Assembly: GCA_015061945.1 (NCBI GenBank)
Contig: SUVP01000008.1
Coordinates: 1-64,000, forward strand
Origin: Opitutales bacterium
GTDB taxonomy: Bacteria; Verrucomicrobiota; Verrucomicrobiia; Opitutales; Intestinicryptomonadaceae
Reading direction: 5' to 3'
DNA length: 64,000 nucleotides
The notes below the pieces were generated by a model. It worked only from the letters and a program-made list of their open reading frames with translations, ran no database searches and had not been told where the DNA came from. The translations under genes and the position numbers were made by a program. Below are positions 33,171 through 43,585 of this stretch, piece by piece; within the stretch, counting starts at the first letter, position 1; each line of letters begins with the position of its first letter.

Positions 33171-36100
33171 ATGAGATTGCTTTCGTATTTGAAGATAATA
33201 GTACTTTTATTGTCTCTTATTTTCGCATCTTTCGAGATTGCGTATGCGGGGAAAGATAGTCGCCCACAAAAGAATGTTTTGCTTTTGGTTTCATATGATG
33301 TTGTTCACCCATGGTCAGAAACATTTGTCAATGCAGTGATGCAACAATCAAAGAATCTTCCATACAATATTAGGTTTGATGTTCTCGAATTGAACACGAT
33401 GCGTTCGCCTGATGAGAACGAATATCAGAAGCGATTAGAATCACGCCTTTTTAATATCTCGAATAATAAGTACGATGCAATTATAACGCTCGACGACCCC
33501 GCACTCGATTTGCTTTTGCAAAACAAAAACAAGTTGAATTTATCTGCACCAGTCGTGTTTGCTGGTTATGAAAAAGATTCTTCAAGCTTACGCCAAAAAT
33601 ATAAAAATCTGACAGGCGTGCGTCAAATAAGCGATGTTGAAAAAACAATTCAGCAAGGGATAAAATTTTATCCTAAAACAAGAAGAATTCTTGTCGTTTG
33701 CGACTCATCAAAAAGTAGTCAAGAGTTTGAAGAAAATATCTCGAAGCTGAAAATAAACGGTGTTAAAATAGAGACTGTCAATACGACTGATAAAACAATT
33801 TTTGAAATCAGTAATATGATAAGTACTCTCGACAGCAACACGCTTGTACTCGTTTGCCCATGGCGTGGAATTAGAGAAAACGATTACCAAAGCACGCCAG
33901 CGTTTGGGATGGATATCGGTAGACTTTCCAAAAAACCATATCTTATTGCCGACATTTCAATGTTGGGGTTTGGTGCATTGGGCGGTTGGGTAACCGATCC
34001 AGTCGAACACGGTAAACACACAGTGTGGCTTCTCGAAAAAACGTTAGATAAGAAATCTGCCACAGATATTCGGATTATGGCGACAAAAGCACGTCCGTTT
34101 TTCGATTGGAACGTGATGAATCAATTTGATCTCGAGTCCGAAAAATTACCTGCTTATTCATTTTTAAAAAATCGTCCGATTGGCTATTGGGAACACTACA
34201 AGACACAGATAATATCGTTTATAATTGCGTTTATAGCGTTGGGTGGAGCGTTGTTTAGCCATATGTATACGTCGTTGCGTACAAGTAAAAAAACGATGGA
34301 GCTAATTGAATCGTTCCCTGGTCGAATTGGTGTTTTTGATGAAGAAGGAAACATTCTTTACTTGAGTTCTGAAAATGCGTCGGAAGTGCGATTAGCAAAA
34401 CATCTCAAAGAACTTCCAAATTTGAATTACGATTTATTCTCGGCTGAAGCAAAAAAGACTTTTGAAAATGGACAACGCCGAACTTATGAGTACGACACAA
34501 ATGGCGAACATCGTTTTGTTATAATCTCTCCACTTTCTGAAAGTTTGTTTGGTAAGCCCACTGCAATGTGGTTTTCAACCGATAATACCGAGCTTTTTAC
34601 AGCTCGCCAAAATGCAGAAAAAGCCGAGCTTGAAAAGTTTGAAAGTCAGCAAAAATACATTCAGGCGATGCGTCTTTGGGACATCGTTATAAACACACTC
34701 CCCACAATGTTCTTTGCAAAAGATGCCGACGATAACTTCAGATACTTACTCTGCAACGACGCTTTTGCAGAGTTTATCGGCAAAGAAAGAAAAGATATTA
34801 TCGGCAAAACAGATTTAGAAATTTTTGGCGATGAAGAGTTGGCAATGCCTTTTGTCGAAAGGGACAGATTCGCGATTGAGTCAGATAACGGACTCGAGTT
34901 TGAAGAATTCTGTTTAGACTCAAACGGGATGCAACGTTGTTATAAGACGATAAAAGTGCCTTATACCGACGCAGGTAAACGTATGCTTATCGGTGTATCG
35001 ACCGATATTACCGAACTCAACGCACTCTATAAAATGCAAAAAGCAATGACTGCTTGTATGGAATTTATCTTTGCAAAAGATGACCCACAAGGAAGTATAT
35101 CGTTTGCATTGAAAACGCTGGGAGAACAAACCGATGCTTCGAGATGTGTAATATTTAAACTCGAAGACGACCACAAATATTTGCATTCACACAGCGAGTT
35201 TGTCGCAAACGGACGCGAAAAAATCTTCGATAGAATAGAACTTCCCGAAGACGAAATTTACACAGAAGACAATAAAGTGTGGACAGCTTATGAAGACCTT
35301 TCTGAACAAGCAAAATCCTTCGGCTCAAAATGGGAAACGTTAATTAAAGAGAACAAAATCTCGGCAATGTATGTGAACAGAATTTCAATCAAAGAAAAAT
35401 TCTGGGGCTACATTGTTCTATTTTACGAAAACGAAATTCCCGACGAATCTCGCAAACAAACAATGCGTTCGTTCTCTCGATTTATCGAGGTAATTATCGA
35501 AAGAGAATTTTCTCAAATGCAAATTCTTTCTGCACTGGAACAAGCTCGCGAAGCTAATAGGGCAAAGAGTTATTTTATTGCGTCGGTCAGCCACGAAATT
35601 AGAACTCCGCTCAACACAGTAATCGGGTTGTCGGAATTACTACGCAACTCGACAGTTTCAGAGGAGGAACAAAAACAATATTTGGAATCAATCGTCTATG
35701 GTGGTAATGCACTACTGCAGTTGATAAACGATGTTCTCGACTTGTCGAAACTTGAAGCAGGGCAGATGAATATTGTATCGGAGTTTTGCAATTTATTGGA
35801 AATCGCAGACGGAGTAAGACGACTTTTCCAACACAAAGCATCGGAGAAAAATATCGAGTTGCAAATTGATATTCCAACCGATATGCCAATGCTACTTTTC
35901 GACAGAATGCGTATACGCCAAATCCTCCTAAATTTGCTGGGTAATGCAGTGAAATTTACATCGAAAGGATTTATAAAAATCTGGGCGAAATTTGAAAAAA
36001 TCGACGAACAATTTTGCACGCTAACTTTTGCAGTTAGCGATACTGGCACAGGGATTGCTCAAGAAGATATCGCAAACCTAATGAATCCATTTGTGCAACT

Positions 36101-36716
36101 TGGCAATGGTCGGGGTAATGACGACTTCAACCGAGGCACAGGTTTGGGTCTGCCGATTAGTAAACGCCTTGCTGAAAAAATGGGTGGCGAATTGTGGATT
36201 AAAAGTCGAGTCGGCGAGGGTAGTACATTTGGTGTAACTATAAATAGTATTCGCTACTCGCCTAAAAAACAAATAACGGCAATTTCGGAATCGAGCGTGG
36301 TGGCGTCGGGCGTCGATAAGAATATATCGTTGCTTATCGTTGATGACGTGGATATGAACAGAAAAGTTCTCAAGGCGATGTGTGCAAAGATGGGCGTTGT
36401 CGATATCGAAACAGCGTCGAGTGCAAAAGAAGCGTTGGCGATTTTGCAAACCCGTAAGTTCTCGCTTGTGCTTACTGATATTTGGATGCCAGAAATGTCG
36501 GGCGAAGATTTTGCACGAGAAATCCGAAAAGTTCGCAATTACGACGATATCCCGATTGTCGCCGTAACTGCCGATATCGAAGCACGTGGAAACTTTGATG
36601 TAAACGTATTTTCAGGAATTTTGCTCAAGCCAATTACGATAGCAAAAATCAACAAAATTATCGCATATGCACAGAATCCGACACAAGCAAACCTCGTAAA
36701 CGAATTAGAAAAATAA
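33171..36716 (+). CDS. Membrane-bound hybrid sensor histidine kinase
   Basis: Protein of 1181 residues: N-terminal transmembrane segment (about 5-25), a large periplasmic region resembling an ABC-transporter substrate-binding domain (KNVLLLVSYDVVHPWSETFV...), a second transmembrane helix (about 345-365), PAS-type domains, a GAF-like domain (about 640-770), HisKA with phosphorylated His808 (VSHEIRTPLN), and HATPase with LLNLLGNAVKF, DTGTGI and GTGLGLPISK. A C-terminal receiver has phospho-acceptor Asp1103 (LTDIWMPEMSG). The extracytoplasmic solute-binding-like sensor suggests detection of a small molecule or sugar, unidentified here. No separate response regulator lies beside it, so output may be a phosphorelay to a distant partner. 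It is followed 59 bp later by the MscS-type channel gene. Confidence 0.9.
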   Translation: MRLLSYLKIIVLLLSLIFASFEIAYAGKDSRPQKNVLLLVSYDVVHPWSETFVNAVMQQSKNLPYNIRFDVLELNTMRSPDENEYQKRLESRLFNISNNKYDAIITLDDPALDLLLQNKNKLNLSAPVVFAGYEKDSSSLRQKYKNLTGVRQISDVEKTIQQGIKFYPKTRRILVVCDSSKSSQEFEENISKLKINGVKIETVNTTDKTIFEISNMISTLDSNTLVLVCPWRGIRENDYQSTPAFGMDIGRLSKKPYLIADISMLGFGALGGWVTDPVEHGKHTVWLLEKTLDKKSATDIRIMATKARPFFDWNVMNQFDLESEKLPAYSFLKNRPIGYWEHYKTQIISFIIAFIALGGALFSHMYTSLRTSKKTMELIESFPGRIGVFDEEGNILYLSSENASEVRLAKHLKELPNLNYDLFSAEAKKTFENGQRRTYEYDTNGEHRFVIISPLSESLFGKPTAMWFSTDNTELFTARQNAEKAELEKFESQQKYIQAMRLWDIVINTLPTMFFAKDADDNFRYLLCNDAFAEFIGKERKDIIGKTDLEIFGDEELAMPFVERDRFAIESDNGLEFEEFCLDSNGMQRCYKTIKVPYTDAGKRMLIGVSTDITELNALYKMQKAMTACMEFIFAKDDPQGSISFALKTLGEQTDASRCVIFKLEDDHKYLHSHSEFVANGREKIFDRIELPEDEIYTEDNKVWTAYEDLSEQAKSFGSKWETLIKENKISAMYVNRISIKEKFWGYIVLFYENEIPDESRKQTMRSFSRFIEVIIEREFSQMQILSALEQAREANRAKSYFIASVSHEIRTPLNTVIGLSELLRNSTVSEEEQKQYLESIVYGGNALLQLINDVLDLSKLEAGQMNIVSEFCNLLEIADGVRRLFQHKASEKNIELQIDIPTDMPMLLFDRMRIRQILLNLLGNAVKFTSKGFIKIWAKFEKIDEQFCTLTFAVSDTGTGIAQEDIANLMNPFVQLGNGRGNDDFNRGTGLGLPISKRLAEKMGGELWIKSRVGEGSTFGVTINSIRYSPKKQITAISESSVVASGVDKNISLLIVDDVDMNRKVLKAMCAKMGVVDIETASSAKEALAILQTRKFSLVLTDIWMPEMSGEDFAREIRKVRNYDDIPIVAVTADIEARGNFDVNVFSGILLKPITIAKINKIIAYAQNPTQANLVNELEK

Positions 36717-38202: not shown

Positions 38203-41200
38203 TTAGAACTTAAACTTTACGCCAAGATCAAGTCCATGTGCTGTGAAATCGTCTCGGAGTGTTGCAGAATAATCGAGGAATGCCGATACTCTGTCCGAGA
38301 AGTTGTAGTTGAGACCTAATCCCAAGAGAGCAGCGTCTTCAGATGCGTCAATTCCACGATATTTTGCAGAGTTCATAAATGAATTGCCTGCATTGATTTT
38401 GTAATTTGCATCATATGATGTGTCGCAGAATTCATGTACCCAGAAAGCACGAGCCATTACTGCAAAACTTGCATCAATATCATACTTAACTTCAAGACCG
38501 ATTAATGTTCTTACATTGATGTAATCATTGCTTGATACATTAGCATTGTAGAAACCTGCACCTTCTTCAGTTGCTGAATCATCGTTTAGGTAAACGATGT
38601 TGTACATTGCCATAGGTTTAATTGTCAAACCGTCAACGCCAACTTTCTTGAATGTATATGCTACACCGCCGAGAGTATTGAATGCGTTTGAATCATAATC
38701 AATCGATGCAGTTCCATCTGGAGTTGAACGTGAAGCTTCGTTCCAGCTGTGTGCATATCCGAAGTTTGCAAAGATATCCAAAGGCATATCTTTCATTGTG
38801 TAGACTGCGTAAACATCAGCTAAGAAGCTTGTAGAATTAGAATCACAAATGTTATCGCCTTCAATTTTGTTATAGATACCACCCAATGAAATACCTGCAA
38901 GGAGGTTTTCCGAGAAGTCTCTTTCAATTGCAGCCAATGCACCTGCTGACCAGAAGTCAAAACCTTCAGCCATACCTTGTCCGTCTTGCGAGCCGAGCAT
39001 ATTGATGCTAATGAGTTCAGCTGCATTATTTGTGGTTGATGGTCTTAAGCTCTTGTTTCTCTTTGAATCTGCAACAGATGTCATTCTGTAAGCTTTTGCA
39101 AGGTTTACATTCATGAGCATTTCTGAATTGATTTGTGCCAACTGTGTATTTGCTTGTGGCATAAAATCATTCAAGTTGCGAGTATCAACGTTTGCTTTGA
39201 AATCGCGACGTGATTGAATTGCTGCTTCGCGTGCCGATATTTCTTCTGCAGTTTCTTTTTCTGCTGCTTCGATTGTTGTAATCGAGTCGAGAGCTTTAGC
39301 CAATGAACGTTGGTCATCTGAAACAGCTTTCGATTGGAAATATGAAAGCTTATTAACTTTTACACCACCAATTTGAGCTGCTTTAACATTGCCGTCAGCG
39401 TCAGCTTCTTGATTAGCAGCAAGTGTATAGTCAAAGTTGACCATATTACCGTCGATATTTTTCAAATCAGCTTCCTTCAATGAATCTTCTGGAGTGCCAT
39501 CTGCCTTATAGGTTTTGAATGCAGCGTTATCGCTTACATCAATTCCTTCATATTTGTCATTTACAAGAGCTGTTGCAGAACCTGCAATAAATTGTGCTCT
39601 CTTAGATGATGCCATTGCATTCGCACTCGATGTTGATTTATTTCCTGCGGCTGCGTCAGCGGCTTGAGCAAGCTGAATTGCTTCAAACTCAACTTTTCCA
39701 TCAACTTTAGCAAGTTTACCATCGTAGCCTGCTGCAAGCGAGAGATCTGCATCTTTACCGATTGTAATGACATCGCCAGTAATAGTACCACCTTCAACAA
39801 TCAATGTACCTTTGCCATTGATATTTAATGGTGAATTTGCCTCTACATTACCTTTTGCAGTTGCTGTACCTGCAACTTCAACAGTAAGACCTTTATTTGG
39901 ATTTGCTTGATCATGAACGTTTGTTATTGCAAGACCATAACCATCGTTTTTGAGCTCAACACCGAGAACTTTACCATCAGCGTCAATGAGTTTTTCAAAG
40001 ACATATTGTCTTGCTGAAACAATCGCACCATCGCCAAGTTTTACATTACCATCTGTTGATTTGATAGCTGTTGCTTCTCCAGAAGAAGTTTTGACTCTTG
40101 AAACTTCTTTTCCATCTTTATCAAGAGTGACATCTTCTGTATTGTAAACTTCAGCAGTTACCTTACCATTTATAACAGCATTTTCTGTGCCAGCTTCAAT
40201 AGCAGTTGCATTACCTGTTCTTGCGATAGCTGTAATGTTGCCGTTTACATTTGCTTCGATTTCAGAAGCCTTGATGCCAGTTGCATTTATACCTTCTGCA
40301 TAAACATCTGCATTGAAGTCGCCTCTAAATTCTTTGTCAACAATTGGACCATTTGTATCATCTAGAATTACAGGATTTCCTTCTGCATTAACTTCAATTT
40401 CTGGTTTTCCATTTTTGTCGAGCTTAATTTGCTGAACAACGTTACCATCTGCATCGAGAACTTTATTTCCTTCTTCGTCAAGGACGTCTTCCATTACATA
40501 CTTATATTGCGATGTAATTTCAACTTCAGAACCAATTTCCAACTCACCTGCAAGGTCGATAGCAACAGCGTCGCCACCAAGAGCCTTTGCAACAAACGAA
40601 CCATTAAGTTCTGTCTTTGATGGAGTAATTGTATTGAGGTCGATAATTGGCATTTCTTTTGCTTTTGCCATTTTGGCTTCAGCATCGTCTTTGTCAGCAT
40701 CTTCTACAGTGTTGACAATTTCGACTTCATTACCAACGCGAAGCTCAACGCCTTTATACGCAGTAGCATTGCCACCTTTTGTTTTTCCGTCTACATCAAC
40801 ATATGAACCTGCAGTTGCACTTGCGTTAATTGTACGAGAAACGTCCTTAAGGATATCTGCTGGCAATTTCTTATCTGCAAAATCAGCAACAGAAACTTCC
40901 GTTTCAAAACCTGTTTCAATTTTATTTGCTTCAATAGCAGTTGCGTCGCCGACTGTATATTTTTCAACAAAGGATTCTACCTTTTTGCCGTCGATAGTTT
41001 CTGTTTTAACCTCTGTGATTTCTTTTATAACTGCAGTTTCTGCGACAGCGTTGATTGTTAGCTCAGATGCACGAATGTATGCAGGACGATCAGGATCTTT
41101 AGTAGTAGATTCAAGAGCTGTCGCATCGTCACCTTCTGCATATGCTGAAGTGTCAATAGAAACTTTTTTTGCATCGATTACGTCGACATCAACACCCTCT

Positions 41201-41982
41201 GCATCACCAAACAAAGCTTTTGTTGTTTTATCTTCGTTTTCAGTAAAGGTAGCTTTTGAAACTGCCGAAGATTTAATTTCTACATTTTCTTCAGAATAAA
41301 TAGCATCAACATCAATGGCTTCGGCTTTTCCTCCGAAAGCATTTGCTGTTGCTTTAAGATTTATATTGCCGGCGTTGATTTTGGTTTTAACATCAATACC
41401 AACAGCTTCTTTGCCATTTGCTACAGCATTAATATCAACGCTACCTGGTTTGGATTTAATTTCTTCTATAACTTTTTCATTTGCGTCTTTAATCAGAATC
41501 TCGTTTTCATCTGCAGAAATTAAATTAACAGAAAGGGCAGTTGCTGTACCTTTTTCAGCATTAGCCTCAAAAGTTCCTTTAAAACTACCGCCGTCAGAAA
41601 GAGCGATTGCTTCTGGATTCTTGTACTGATCTTTTTCAATCGAAATAACGTTGTCTAACTTTACGTCTCCAGCTTGGAATGCAGTTGCAACATTACCTTC
41701 TGTTGAAGTTGCCTTTATCGTCAAATCGATAGATTCAGATGCAATACCACCTTCGGTGATTACATTCGCTTCTGTTCCAGAAGTTTTGATTTCTGTAACA
41801 GTTGTTCTATCGATATTGGCATCAGGATCAATGTTTGCTTTCAATGATGAACCTACAACATCGCCTTTGTCGCTTACTTCAAATGTGCCAGTGTAGATTG
41901 GATCATCTGCATATGCAAATGCAGCAGAACCCAATGCAGCAAAGGCAATTATTTGTTTTATAGATGGTTTTTTTGTTTTCAT
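38203..41982 (-). CDS. Large repeat-rich autotransporter (type V secretion, surface protein)
   Basis: Protein of 1259 residues from the ATG at 41982 (MKTKKPSIKQIIAFAALGSAAFAYA), preferred because it starts a signal peptide; the frame is open 13 codons further upstream. The very acidic passenger (about 25-950) is built of degenerate units carrying G-x-A-T-A-(I/L/V/F), for example GNVATAFQAGDV, EGDDATALEST, VGDATAIEANKI, GGNATAYKGVEL and RTGNATAIEAGTE, each followed by beta strands. This suggests a long beta-helix on the cell surface. The C-terminal about 275 residues form a beta-barrel (DFWSAGALAAIERDFSENLLAG...) ending in KFKF, as autotransporters do. Function unknown; adhesion or surface-layer role is inferred. 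The divergent tyrosine recombinase may control it. Confidence 0.85.
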   Translation of the reverse strand: MKTKKPSIKQIIAFAALGSAAFAYADDPIYTGTFEVSDKGDVVGSSLKANIDPDANIDRTTVTEIKTSGTEANVITEGGIASESIDLTIKATSTEGNVATAFQAGDVKLDNVISIEKDQYKNPEAIALSDGGSFKGTFEANAEKGTATALSVNLISADENEILIKDANEKVIEEIKSKPGSVDINAVANGKEAVGIDVKTKINAGNINLKATANAFGGKAEAIDVDAIYSEENVEIKSSAVSKATFTENEDKTTKALFGDAEGVDVDVIDAKKVSIDTSAYAEGDDATALESTTKDPDRPAYIRASELTINAVAETAVIKEITEVKTETIDGKKVESFVEKYTVGDATAIEANKIETGFETEVSVADFADKKLPADILKDVSRTINASATAGSYVDVDGKTKGGNATAYKGVELRVGNEVEIVNTVEDADKDDAEAKMAKAKEMPIIDLNTITPSKTELNGSFVAKALGGDAVAIDLAGELEIGSEVEITSQYKYVMEDVLDEEGNKVLDADGNVVQQIKLDKNGKPEIEVNAEGNPVILDDTNGPIVDKEFRGDFNADVYAEGINATGIKASEIEANVNGNITAIARTGNATAIEAGTENAVINGKVTAEVYNTEDVTLDKDGKEVSRVKTSSGEATAIKSTDGNVKLGDGAIVSARQYVFEKLIDADGKVLGVELKNDGYGLAITNVHDQANPNKGLTVEVAGTATAKGNVEANSPLNINGKGTLIVEGGTITGDVITIGKDADLSLAAGYDGKLAKVDGKVEFEAIQLAQAADAAAGNKSTSSANAMASSKRAQFIAGSATALVNDKYEGIDVSDNAAFKTYKADGTPEDSLKEADLKNIDGNMVNFDYTLAANQEADADGNVKAAQIGGVKVNKLSYFQSKAVSDDQRSLAKALDSITTIEAAEKETAEEISAREAAIQSRRDFKANVDTRNLNDFMPQANTQLAQINSEMLMNVNLAKAYRMTSVADSKRNKSLRPSTTNNAAELISINMLGSQDGQGMAEGFDFWSAGALAAIERDFSENLLAGISLGGIYNKIEGDNICDSNSTSFLADVYAVYTMKDMPLDIFANFGYAHSWNEASRSTPDGTASIDYDSNAFNTLGGVAYTFKKVGVDGLTIKPMAMYNIVYLNDDSATEEGAGFYNANVSSNDYINVRTLIGLEVKYDIDASFAVMARAFWVHEFCDTSYDANYKINAGNSFMNSAKYRGIDASEDAALLGLGLNYNFSDRVSAFLDYSATLRDDFTAHGLDLGVKFKF

Positions 41983-42021
41983 ATTTTTATTTGTTGTTAC
42001 GATTTTTATTGTAAAACGCAT

Positions 42022-42224
42022 CTATAAATAGAGTATTTATAATACTATTATATTATTAATATTTGTAATAAGCTTATTATTATTTAGTTAATCAAAACAG
42101 CTTGTTTTAAAATCTTATTTATAACGCTAATTTTTATTTTAGCTTATTCATTACTTTCTTCGTCTTTTTCAAATATTTCAAAAGTTTTTTTGAAATTTTA
42201 TTTGACAGTAGTATTATAAATACG
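42022..42224. promoter_or_regulatory. Palindrome-dense AT-rich spacer between autotransporter and recombinase
   Basis: This 203-bp divergent spacer is almost all A and T. A 15-bp perfect inverted repeat sits near its two ends: 42033-42047 (GTATTTATAATACTA) and 42209-42223 (TAGTATTATAAATAC, one base before the recombinase ATG). Each arm is itself a near-palindrome. Between them lie a 14-bp palindrome at 42066-42079 (TAATAAGCTTATTA), a hairpin at 42094-42108 and a dyad at 42170-42204. A perfect TTGACA at 42202-42207 points at the recombinase but is too close to its ATG to act as its -35. An invertible promoter or operator cluster is a hypothesis only. Confidence 0.5.
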
Positions 42225-43220
42225 ATGAACAAAGAAATTATCTCTGCATTGGAATTGTTGAAGGGGACTGGTGTGTCGGTGCTCGATGCTTGCCGTTTCG
42301 TTCGGAATATTTTAGACTCGAAAAATTCAGAGTTTAATTTGAGTAATGTTCAATATTGTGCAAAGGTCATATCGGTCGGTATGCGTAATGTTCGCTCAGC
42401 GGAAATGTCGTTCGCAGAGGGGTTCGATTTATATTACAAAACTAAATCGCATCTTCGCCCCGATTCTCTTCGAGACATTCGCACTATCGGTAAGCGGTTA
42501 ATCCGCACTAACCCCAATTTCGCAAAGCTCAATTTTTCAGACCTAACACGCAACATTTGCGAAGACTGGCTGAATTCAGCGTTCACAACGCCATCGCAAT
42601 TTAACAAAGCCCGTATGATGTTGCACGGACTCTTTCAATTTGCCTTTCGCAAAGAATGGTGCGACAAAAACCCAATTAAGCTAATCGAACGCAAAAAAGT
42701 TATCGAAAAAGAAATCGTCCCGCTAACTTTAGAACAAATAAAAACTCTCTTAAAAAATGCAAAAAAATACAAGGGCTGTCTCGCTCCAGTCGGGCTGTTA
42801 ATCTTTGCAGGAATACGTCCACGAGAGGCAAAGCGTCTCAACTGGGACGATATCGACCTTGACGAAAACTCGATAACAATACGTTCGATATGTTCCAAAA
42901 CTGGCGGGACAAGGCATGTCGAGGTCTGCCCAAACTTAAAACATATTTTGACAGAAACCGATAAATCAGGACAAAAGATATGTCCAAAAAATTGGGACAA
43001 CAAGTGGCGTGGAATCCGCAATAATTCGGGCTTTTACGGACACTGGCAACAAGATGTACTCCGCCATACCTACGCAAGCTATCACGCAAAATACTATCGC
43101 AACCTCCCGCAACTTCAGCTAAATATGGGGCATCACGACCTCTCGCTACTTCGCACCCGATACATCAATATGGGCAACATCTCAACCTACACCGCAAAAG
43201 CTTTTTTTATTTATAATTGA
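42225..43220 (+). CDS. Tyrosine recombinase / site-specific integrase
   Basis: Protein of 331 residues. An N-terminal helical region (about 1-60) and a SAM-like core-binding domain (about 61-150) precede the catalytic domain. Catalytic residues: Arg198 (FAGIRPRE), Lys225 (SKTGGTRH), Arg280 (QDVLRHTYAS), His303 (MGHHD) and the Tyr313 nucleophile (RTRYIN). The position three before Arg280, normally His in HxxR, is Asp277, which I think is normal in some relatives. It is not clearly XerC or XerD, and no phage genes adjoin it. It stands between a surface-protein gene and a 690-bp block of structured DNA, so it may be a phase-variation invertase or the integrase of a small element. Start at 42225 is at the right arm of the spacer's inverted repeat. 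Confidence 0.85.
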   Translation: MNKEIISALELLKGTGVSVLDACRFVRNILDSKNSEFNLSNVQYCAKVISVGMRNVRSAEMSFAEGFDLYYKTKSHLRPDSLRDIRTIGKRLIRTNPNFAKLNFSDLTRNICEDWLNSAFTTPSQFNKARMMLHGLFQFAFRKEWCDKNPIKLIERKKVIEKEIVPLTLEQIKTLLKNAKKYKGCLAPVGLLIFAGIRPREAKRLNWDDIDLDENSITIRSICSKTGGTRHVEVCPNLKHILTETDKSGQKICPKNWDNKWRGIRNNSGFYGHWQQDVLRHTYASYHAKYYRNLPQLQLNMGHHDLSLLRTRYINMGNISTYTAKAFFIYN

Positions 43221-43392
43221 TGGGGAGGGCTGGTTGCGCCCTCCCCAAACCCCACTGCAAGCAGGTGAGCCACCTGCACATCGTTGAAGGGGCTTTGCCC
43301 CTTACGGAGATTGCATTTGCAATGCTCCTATCCCTGTTTGGATTTTTATTTTGTGTTTATAGTTATTTTAATGATTTATTTTTTTTAGAATA
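43216..43392 (+). repeat. Structured 177-bp element, copy A (tandem repeat unit)
   Basis: First of two tandem copies directly behind the recombinase stop codon. It contains four successive hairpins: 43221-43247 (TGGGGAGGGC / GCCCTCCCCA, 7-nt loop), 43261-43277 (GCAGGTG / CACCTGC), 43287-43303 (AAGGGGC / GCCCCTT) and 43306-43328 (GGAG and ATTGC paired with GCAAT and CTCC, one-base bulge). The remainder is T-rich. About 90% identical to copy B. No convincing reading frame runs through it. It could be a structured RNA, an attachment or folded recombination site, or a dispersed REP-like element. Confidence 0.85.
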
Positions 43393-43409
43393 GATACATT
43401 TGGATTTAA

Positions 43410-43585
43410 ATTGATGGGGAGGGTTGGTTGCACCCTCCCCAAACCCCACTGCAAGCAGGTGAGCCACCTGCACATCGTTGAAGGGGCGTTGCCCCTTACG
43501 GAGATTGCTTTCGCAATACTCCTATCCCTGTTCGGATTTTTATTTGATGTGTGTTGCTATTTTAATGGTTTATTTTTTTAGAATA
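43410..43585 (+). repeat. Structured 176-bp element, copy B (tandem repeat unit)
   Basis: Second copy, starting 194 bp after copy A with a 17-bp spacer. The four hairpins recur at 43415-43441, 43455-43471, 43481-43497 and 43500-43522. The first stem closes with T-A instead of C-G (both partners changed); the other changes in the folded part are in loops or at the bulge. This compensatory pattern argues that the fold is maintained rather than incidental. Confidence 0.85.

What the first reader, a model, noticed from the sequence alone, without database searches (positions are those of the whole stretch)
42022..42224. Candidate invertible promoter between a surface autotransporter and a tyrosine recombinase
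A perfect 15-bp inverted repeat (42033-42047, 42209-42223) brackets most of the 203-bp divergent spacer; the recombinase is next to it. This is the layout of fim-type and Bacteroides/Akkermansia-type invertons. A perfect TTGACA (42202-42207) lies inside the bracket near its right end. In the present orientation it points to the recombinase only 17 bp from its ATG. If flipped, it would point at the autotransporter gene, 18 bp ahead of a TATTTA. Repeat-rich surface proteins are the usual targets of such switches. Caveat: the region is very AT-rich and each arm is itself palindromic, so the pair may be two operator sites.
Basis: inference. Interest (0 to 1): 0.68.

Follow-up and report, generated by a model that had tools for sequence, protein, structure and literature searches.

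The report
Recombinase-flipped promoter for surface protein
A short stretch of DNA between a surface-protein gene and a DNA-flipping enzyme gene is very probably an on/off switch: relatives show the same stretch flipped around exactly at its two mirror-image ends, so some cells would make the surface protein and others not, as is already known for the gut bacterium Akkermansia.

Summary
The perfect 15-bp inverted repeat at 42033-42047 / 42209-42223 exists. It belongs to a conserved element found next to related recombinases: arms GTATT-NNN-AATAC, total span usually 174-192 bp, and TTGACA exactly 3 bp inside one arm. The middle NNN varies from element to element, but the two arms of one element match in 37 of 37 cases. 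That is the signature of a recombination crossover, not of two operator sites. Inversion is seen directly: two class-mate genomes (L135, L136) have matching flanks (294/300 on the recombinase side), while the interior matches 142/144 inverted. Within the family, L048, L123 and L124 have the promoter end facing the target. One assembly breaks exactly at an arm, as expected if both orientations were present. In the window the promoter end faces the recombinase, so the autotransporter is probably OFF. Targets are often secreted proteins with PEP-CTERM-like tails; here it is the genome's only autotransporter. This is the same kind of switch as the read-verified Akkermansia 'group 138' invertons, now in another order of the class. 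No reads were available, so flipping at this exact locus is inferred. The -10 element is unresolved.

The parts
42033..42047 (+). left arm of the inverted repeat; 13-bp core GTATT-TAT-AATAC is 42033-42045, asymmetric centre TAT at 42038-42040
42209..42223 (+). right arm; core GTATT-ATA-AATAC is 42211-42223, centre ATA (reverse complement of TAT); 1 bp before the recombinase ATG
42046..42210 (.). invertible interior (165 bp between the two 13-bp cores)
   Evidence: conserved arm-to-arm geometry in 37 elements; interior found inverted in a related pair
42202..42207 (+). TTGACA, -35 element of the promoter end, exactly 3 bp inside the arm core; faces the recombinase in this assembly
   Evidence: present exactly 3 bp from an arm in 36 of 37 elements when scored as TTGAC
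42160..42201 (+). A/T-tract region upstream of TTGACA (TCAAATATTTCAAAAGTTTTTTTGAAATTTTAT), moderately conserved; possible UP element or accessory site
   Evidence: position-wise conservation at the promoter end; function is inference
42190..42217 (+). second candidate promoter: TTGAAA 42190-42195, 16 bp, TATTAT 42212-42217 inside the arm; would fire outward from the promoter end in both orientations
42025..42032 (-). candidate -10 for the autotransporter in the flipped state: TCTATT 42032-42027 at spacer 16 (4/6) or TATTTA 42030-42025 at spacer 18 (3/6)
42225..43220 (+). tyrosine recombinase, 331 aa, presumed invertase; R198, K225, D277, R280, H303, Y313 invariant in 24 aligned sequences
38203..42021 (-). 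autotransporter, presumed target; likely start ATG 41982; only PF03797 protein in this genome

Best explanation
This is a phase-variation switch (inverton). The tyrosine recombinase encoded beside it recombines the two GTATT-TAT-AATAC arms and inverts the 165 bp between them. One end of the invertible piece, the promoter end, carries a fixed -35 (TTGACA) pointing outward through the nearer arm. As assembled, that end faces the recombinase gene, where the start codon directly follows the arm and there is no usable -10 for this hexamer, so the autotransporter is OFF. After inversion the promoter end faces the autotransporter; the -10 comes either from just outside the arm or from the arm itself, and the gene is ON. 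Shown in sequence: the arms, the identity of their centres across the family, the inverted interior in a related locus pair, both orientations among relatives, and an intact recombinase. Inferred: that this locus flips, that this recombinase does it, and that the flip controls the autotransporter.
For: (1) Arm pairs with fixed geometry and TTGACA 3 bp inside one arm sit directly before the start codon of most full-length relatives. Arm pairs occur in 13 of 19 genomes of the family and are absent from the reversed-pattern control. (2) The central trinucleotide varies between elements but is identical between the two arms of one element in 37 of 37; shuffled partners give a mean of 3.8 and a maximum of 14. 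(3) Direct inversion: G149:C64 against G354:C53, recombinase-side flank 294/300 and target-side flank 54/61 identical, interior 142/144 identical when inverted but only 90/166 columns when direct. (4) Opposite orientation in relatives: L048 with an intact recombinase, solo elements L123 and L124. L040 (the G000:C2 paralogue locus, cut by its contig end) and L072 (broken recombinase) look flipped too, by inspection. (5) Contig G018:C294 ends at the outermost base of an arm and overlaps the flank contig C347 by exactly 141 bp, the footprint expected from an assembly-graph branch if both orientations were present. (6) Three loci with broken recombinases (L071, L072, L073) each have a mutated or missing arm. 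(7) Of 35 predicted target genes, 16 end in a PEP-CTERM-like tail and one further, cut by its contig end, shows the motif. (8) Published read-based work shows such invertons flipping in Akkermansia beside PEP-CTERM and autotransporter genes, one spanning 191 bp like this one (PMC11892184; PMC13343947).
Against: There are no reads for this genome, so no direct proof of flipping here. The -10 in the flipped state is weak in this window. The window element lacks the IHF-like motif found at the far end of about half of its relatives. Assembled orientations are strongly biased to the parked state, about 27 of 28 elements next to a recombinase, so flipping may be rare. The direct inversion pair lies in a different order, with a recombinase only 35% identical.
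Confidence: 0.9

Rival explanations
1. The two arms are operator sites for a dimeric regulator that represses or activates the divergent genes; no DNA inversion takes place.
For: Each arm is nearly palindromic, the region is AT-rich, and the genes are divergent.
Against: Free central bases of operators would not need to match between two sites, yet they match in 37 of 37 elements while varying between elements. The interior is inverted between matching loci. The arms track a tyrosine recombinase.
Confidence: 0.04
2. A relic: the element once flipped but is now locked, and the recombinase acts elsewhere or not at all.
For: Parked orientation dominates. The -10 in the flipped state is weak. Locked, broken copies exist in relatives (L071, L072, L073).
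Against: Arms are perfect, the recombinase frame is intact with all catalytic residues, and broken relatives lose arm integrity while this one has not.
Confidence: 0.06
3. The recombinase is the integrase of a mobile element and the arms are its ends or attachment sites.
For: Tyrosine recombinase fold; the closest solved folds include the Tn1549 and lambda integrases. Several copies per genome.
Against: The recombinase gene lies outside the arm-bounded segment, which holds only 165 bp and no gene. The arms are inverted in every complete element and the interior is conserved. Solo elements without a recombinase lie in front of surface-protein genes.
Confidence: 0.02
4. A variant of the best explanation, not exclusive of it: the promoter end also controls the recombinase. 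In the parked state TTGAAA plus TATTAT inside the arm drives a leaderless recombinase transcript, and flipping turns the recombinase down while turning the autotransporter on.
For: Consensus scan 10/12 at 42190-42217. -35-like hexamers at this spacing across the family average 3.57 of 6 matches against 2.65 in shuffles, 0 of 1000 reaching it.
Against: Promoter-like sites in the region as a whole are not in excess over shuffles (2 found, 2.9 expected). The arm sequence is constrained by recombination, so its TATTNN is not independent evidence for a promoter.
Confidence: 0.25

Closest known systems
Akkermansia muciniphila invertons, 'group 138' (PMC11892184) and the cps1 inverton (PMC13343947)
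   Same: Short invertible intergenic segment between inverted repeats in the same phylum; beside PEP-CTERM and autotransporter genes; one published element spans 191 bp (2092093-2092283), the same as 42033-42223 here; inversion shown by reads.
   Different: The arm consensus given in PMC13343947 (citing Jiang et al. 2019) is CGGATT..AATCCG; here it is GTATT-NNN-AATAC. In this family a recombinase usually adjoins the element.
Bacteroides-type invertible promoters with cluster 3b tyrosine invertases (named in PMC11892184)
   Same: Tyrosine recombinase next to an invertible promoter of surface genes; recombinase oriented so that the promoter does not serve it.
   Different: Different arms and promoter sequence; whether the -10 lies inside the segment there was not tested here.
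E. coli fimS with FimB/FimE (own knowledge)
   Same: Promoter inversion by a tyrosine recombinase; IHF-like site inside the segment in about half of the relatives here.
   Different: fimS is 314 bp with 9-bp repeats and carries the whole promoter inside; no sequence relationship was tested or shown.

Membership tests
Tyrosine recombinase | Catalytic domain and residues R-K-H-R-H-Y | tested here: met
   PF00589 E=3e-11; R198, K225, R280, H303, Y313 invariant in 24 sequences, with Asp277 invariant where the second catalytic His usually is; fold matches Tn1549, lambda and Xer recombinases
Inverton (invertible promoter) | Inverted repeats flanking a short intergenic segment | tested here: met
Inverton (invertible promoter) | Both orientations exist | tested here: inconclusive
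   Not testable at this locus without reads. Seen in a related locus pair, among relatives and as an assembly break
Inverton (invertible promoter) | Outward promoter reaching the target only in one orientation | tested here: inconclusive
   -35 conserved 3 bp from the arm. The -10-like excess on the target flank is confounded by the recombinase half-site, and the match in the window is weak
Akkermansia group 138 invertons | Published inverted-repeat motif CGGATT..AATCCG | tested here: not met
   Arms here are GTATT-NNN-AATAC; shared are the ATT..AAT core, the span and the target classes. So: works like them and probably related, not filed as a member by motif
Akkermansia-type invertase | Relationship of the recombinase | tested here: inconclusive

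The most novel reading that the evidence does not exclude
A self-limiting two-way switch with a portable -35. One promoter end fires outward in both orientations, driving the recombinase from a -10 inside the arm when parked and the surface gene when flipped, so each flip to ON cuts further recombinase synthesis. Recombinase-less copies of the same element elsewhere (for example G000:C9) would be flipped in trans, with the variable central triplet of the arms keeping elements apart.
Probability: 0.2. Interest if true: 0.62.

Novelty: new member of a known kind. Interest (0 to 1): 0.45.

Why it matters
It extends Akkermansia-type phase variation to another order of the same class, with a sequence signature that makes further switches easy to find. 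The variable but paired centre of the arms marks the likely crossover and gives a simple genetic test of recombination. It also predicts that the only autotransporter of this bacterium is made by a subset of cells.

Tried and rejected
Two-operator reading: rejected on the paired central triplets and the inverted interior. Mobile-element integrase: no element ends or cargo, recombinase outside the arms. Looking for other assemblies of the same species: the IMG/VR contig 2914150438 matches G001 at 100% with the same orientation, so it adds nothing; a recombinase search of viral contigs found no relative. Most other viral-contig hits to the arm pattern fail the paired-centre test and look like chance. 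Testing whether the C2 contig end of this genome is also a graph-branch footprint: no overlapping contig end was found among those fetched, so it was dropped. A -10 in the target flank: excess found, but it overlaps what looks like the recombinase half-site, so it is not counted as proof. The idea that different elements of one genome always carry different central triplets: not so, some share one. Looking for earlier reports in other Verrucomicrobiota: two searches empty; the original motif paper (Jiang 2019) is not held.

Full report
Observation. The perfect 15-bp inverted repeat lies at 42033-42047 and 42209-42223, between an autotransporter on the minus strand (38203-42021) and a 331-aa tyrosine recombinase on the plus strand (42225-43220). 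No other perfect copy exists in the genome. Shuffles of the spacer give an inverted repeat this long in 1 of 1000. The likely true start of the autotransporter is 41982, where the signal peptide begins.

Family context. The recombinase has relatives at 45-71% identity through the same family of genomes, often several per genome, and at 31-39% in class mates. Upstream of nearly all full-length copies lies the same arrangement: arm GTATT-NNN-AATAC, about 150-165 bp, TTGACA, 3 bp, arm, then the recombinase start. A pattern search found arm pairs in 13 of 19 family genomes and none in the reversed control. In a 387-genome sample of the phylum, only this genome and four genomes of one genus in the same class had any. 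The own genome has three complete pairs and a fourth locus cut by a contig end. One of the three, G000:C9, has no recombinase beside it and lies 40 bp before a gene for a secreted protein with a PEP-CTERM-like tail. The gene beside the G009:C17 element, a relative with a public record (Verrucomicrobiaceae bacterium SIG74), encodes a protein kinase.

Why inversion and not operators. The three central bases of the arm differ between elements (14 types when read without regard to strand) but the two arms of one element agree in 37 of 37; with partners shuffled the mean is 3.8 and the maximum of 100,000 trials is 14. Site-specific recombination needs identity in the crossover; a regulator dimer does not. 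The outer GTATT/AATAC is then the pair of recombinase half-site cores, which explains why each arm is itself palindromic.

Direct evidence of flipping in relatives. Loci L135 (G149:C64) and L136 (G354:C53) match 294/300 on the recombinase side and 54/61 on the other, while the interior matches 142/144 only when inverted. Within the family, L048 has the promoter end facing the target, as do two solo elements, L123 and L124; L040 (this genome, contig C2) and the broken locus L072 look flipped by inspection. In G018 one contig ends at the last base of an arm and overlaps the flank contig by exactly 141 bp, which is what a short-read assembler leaves if the interior joins two different flanks; the assembler and its word length are not known, so this is an inference. 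Three loci with broken recombinases have a mutated or lost arm.

Promoter. TTGAC lies exactly 3 bp (counting a sixth base) from one arm in 36 of 37 elements, and conservation is much stronger there than anywhere else in the interior. The fixed distance puts a standard -10 for this hexamer outside the arm. On the target side of the element -10-like hexamers are in excess (3.67 against 3.19, sd 0.13; none of 500 shuffles reaches it), and on the other side they are depleted (2.28). This excess is confounded: a TRTA step just beyond the arm also occurs at the inner far end and may belong to the recombinase site. A second possibility uses a TTGAAA-like hexamer and TATTNN inside the arm. Both fire outward from the same end, so both predict the same ON state for the target. 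In this window the flipped -10 is weak, and the present orientation is OFF.

Accessory site. An IHF-like motif YAANNNNTTGATW sits 20-21 bp inside the far arm in about half of the elements (18 of 35 with at most one mismatch in a 26-bp interval; 2.4 expected, maximum 7); the window element lacks it. Binding of IHF or HU is inference.

Targets. Of 35 predicted targets, 16 end in a PEP-CTERM-like tail; others include other secreted proteins and a protein kinase. The window autotransporter is the only PF03797 protein in its genome. In class mate G354 three such elements also precede autotransporter-like genes (assigned by their ends, not by a profile search).

Recombinase. R198, K225, R280, H303 and Y313 are invariant in 24 sequences, and the second catalytic histidine is replaced by an invariant aspartate, D277. 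The model (pLDDT 89.8) matches Tn1549, lambda and Xer-type recombinases. NCBIfam names no specific family above its cut-off.

Known systems. Read-based studies found invertons in Akkermansia muciniphila flanked by a CGGATT..AATCCG motif, near PEP-CTERM and autotransporter genes, one of them 191 bp long and changing orientation over mouse generations (PMC11892184, PMC13343947). The present element works like these and shares span and target classes, but its arms differ, and the names of the unnamed class mates could not be checked. I therefore call it a new member of a known kind, with high confidence in the mechanism and with flipping at this locus still to be shown.

Noticed in passing
window 43209-43585: Two tandem copies (about 194 bp, 91% alike) of an intergenic repeat right after the recombinase; about 14 copies in this genome, some at contig starts (C8, C12).
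   Followed up: partly
G000:C14:307941-308121 (L006): A short recombinase remnant (28 aa, 79% identical) directly beside a copy of that same intergenic repeat, hinting that repeat and recombinase gene have moved or decayed together.
   Followed up: no
L039 6521-7024, L042 8198-8674, L049 7114-7614: A small P-loop protein (143-159 aa, with an SG-x4-GKT/S-type motif) is the first gene beyond the switch in three loci, in at least two of them followed by a secreted-protein gene; function unknown.
   Followed up: no
L122, L124, L125, L126, L128, L129: Solo invertons without an adjacent recombinase in front of secreted proteins with PEP-CTERM-like tails; G008 has two of them but no close relative of the recombinase.
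   Followed up: partly
L122 6535-6722 and L125 8211-8400: The solo element of this genome is 96% identical to one in G009 (SIG74), although the two neighbouring target proteins look different.
   Followed up: no
window 33171-36716: Hybrid histidine kinase with an ABC-transporter-substrate-binding-like sensor, PAS domains and receiver, not far from the switch.
   Followed up: no
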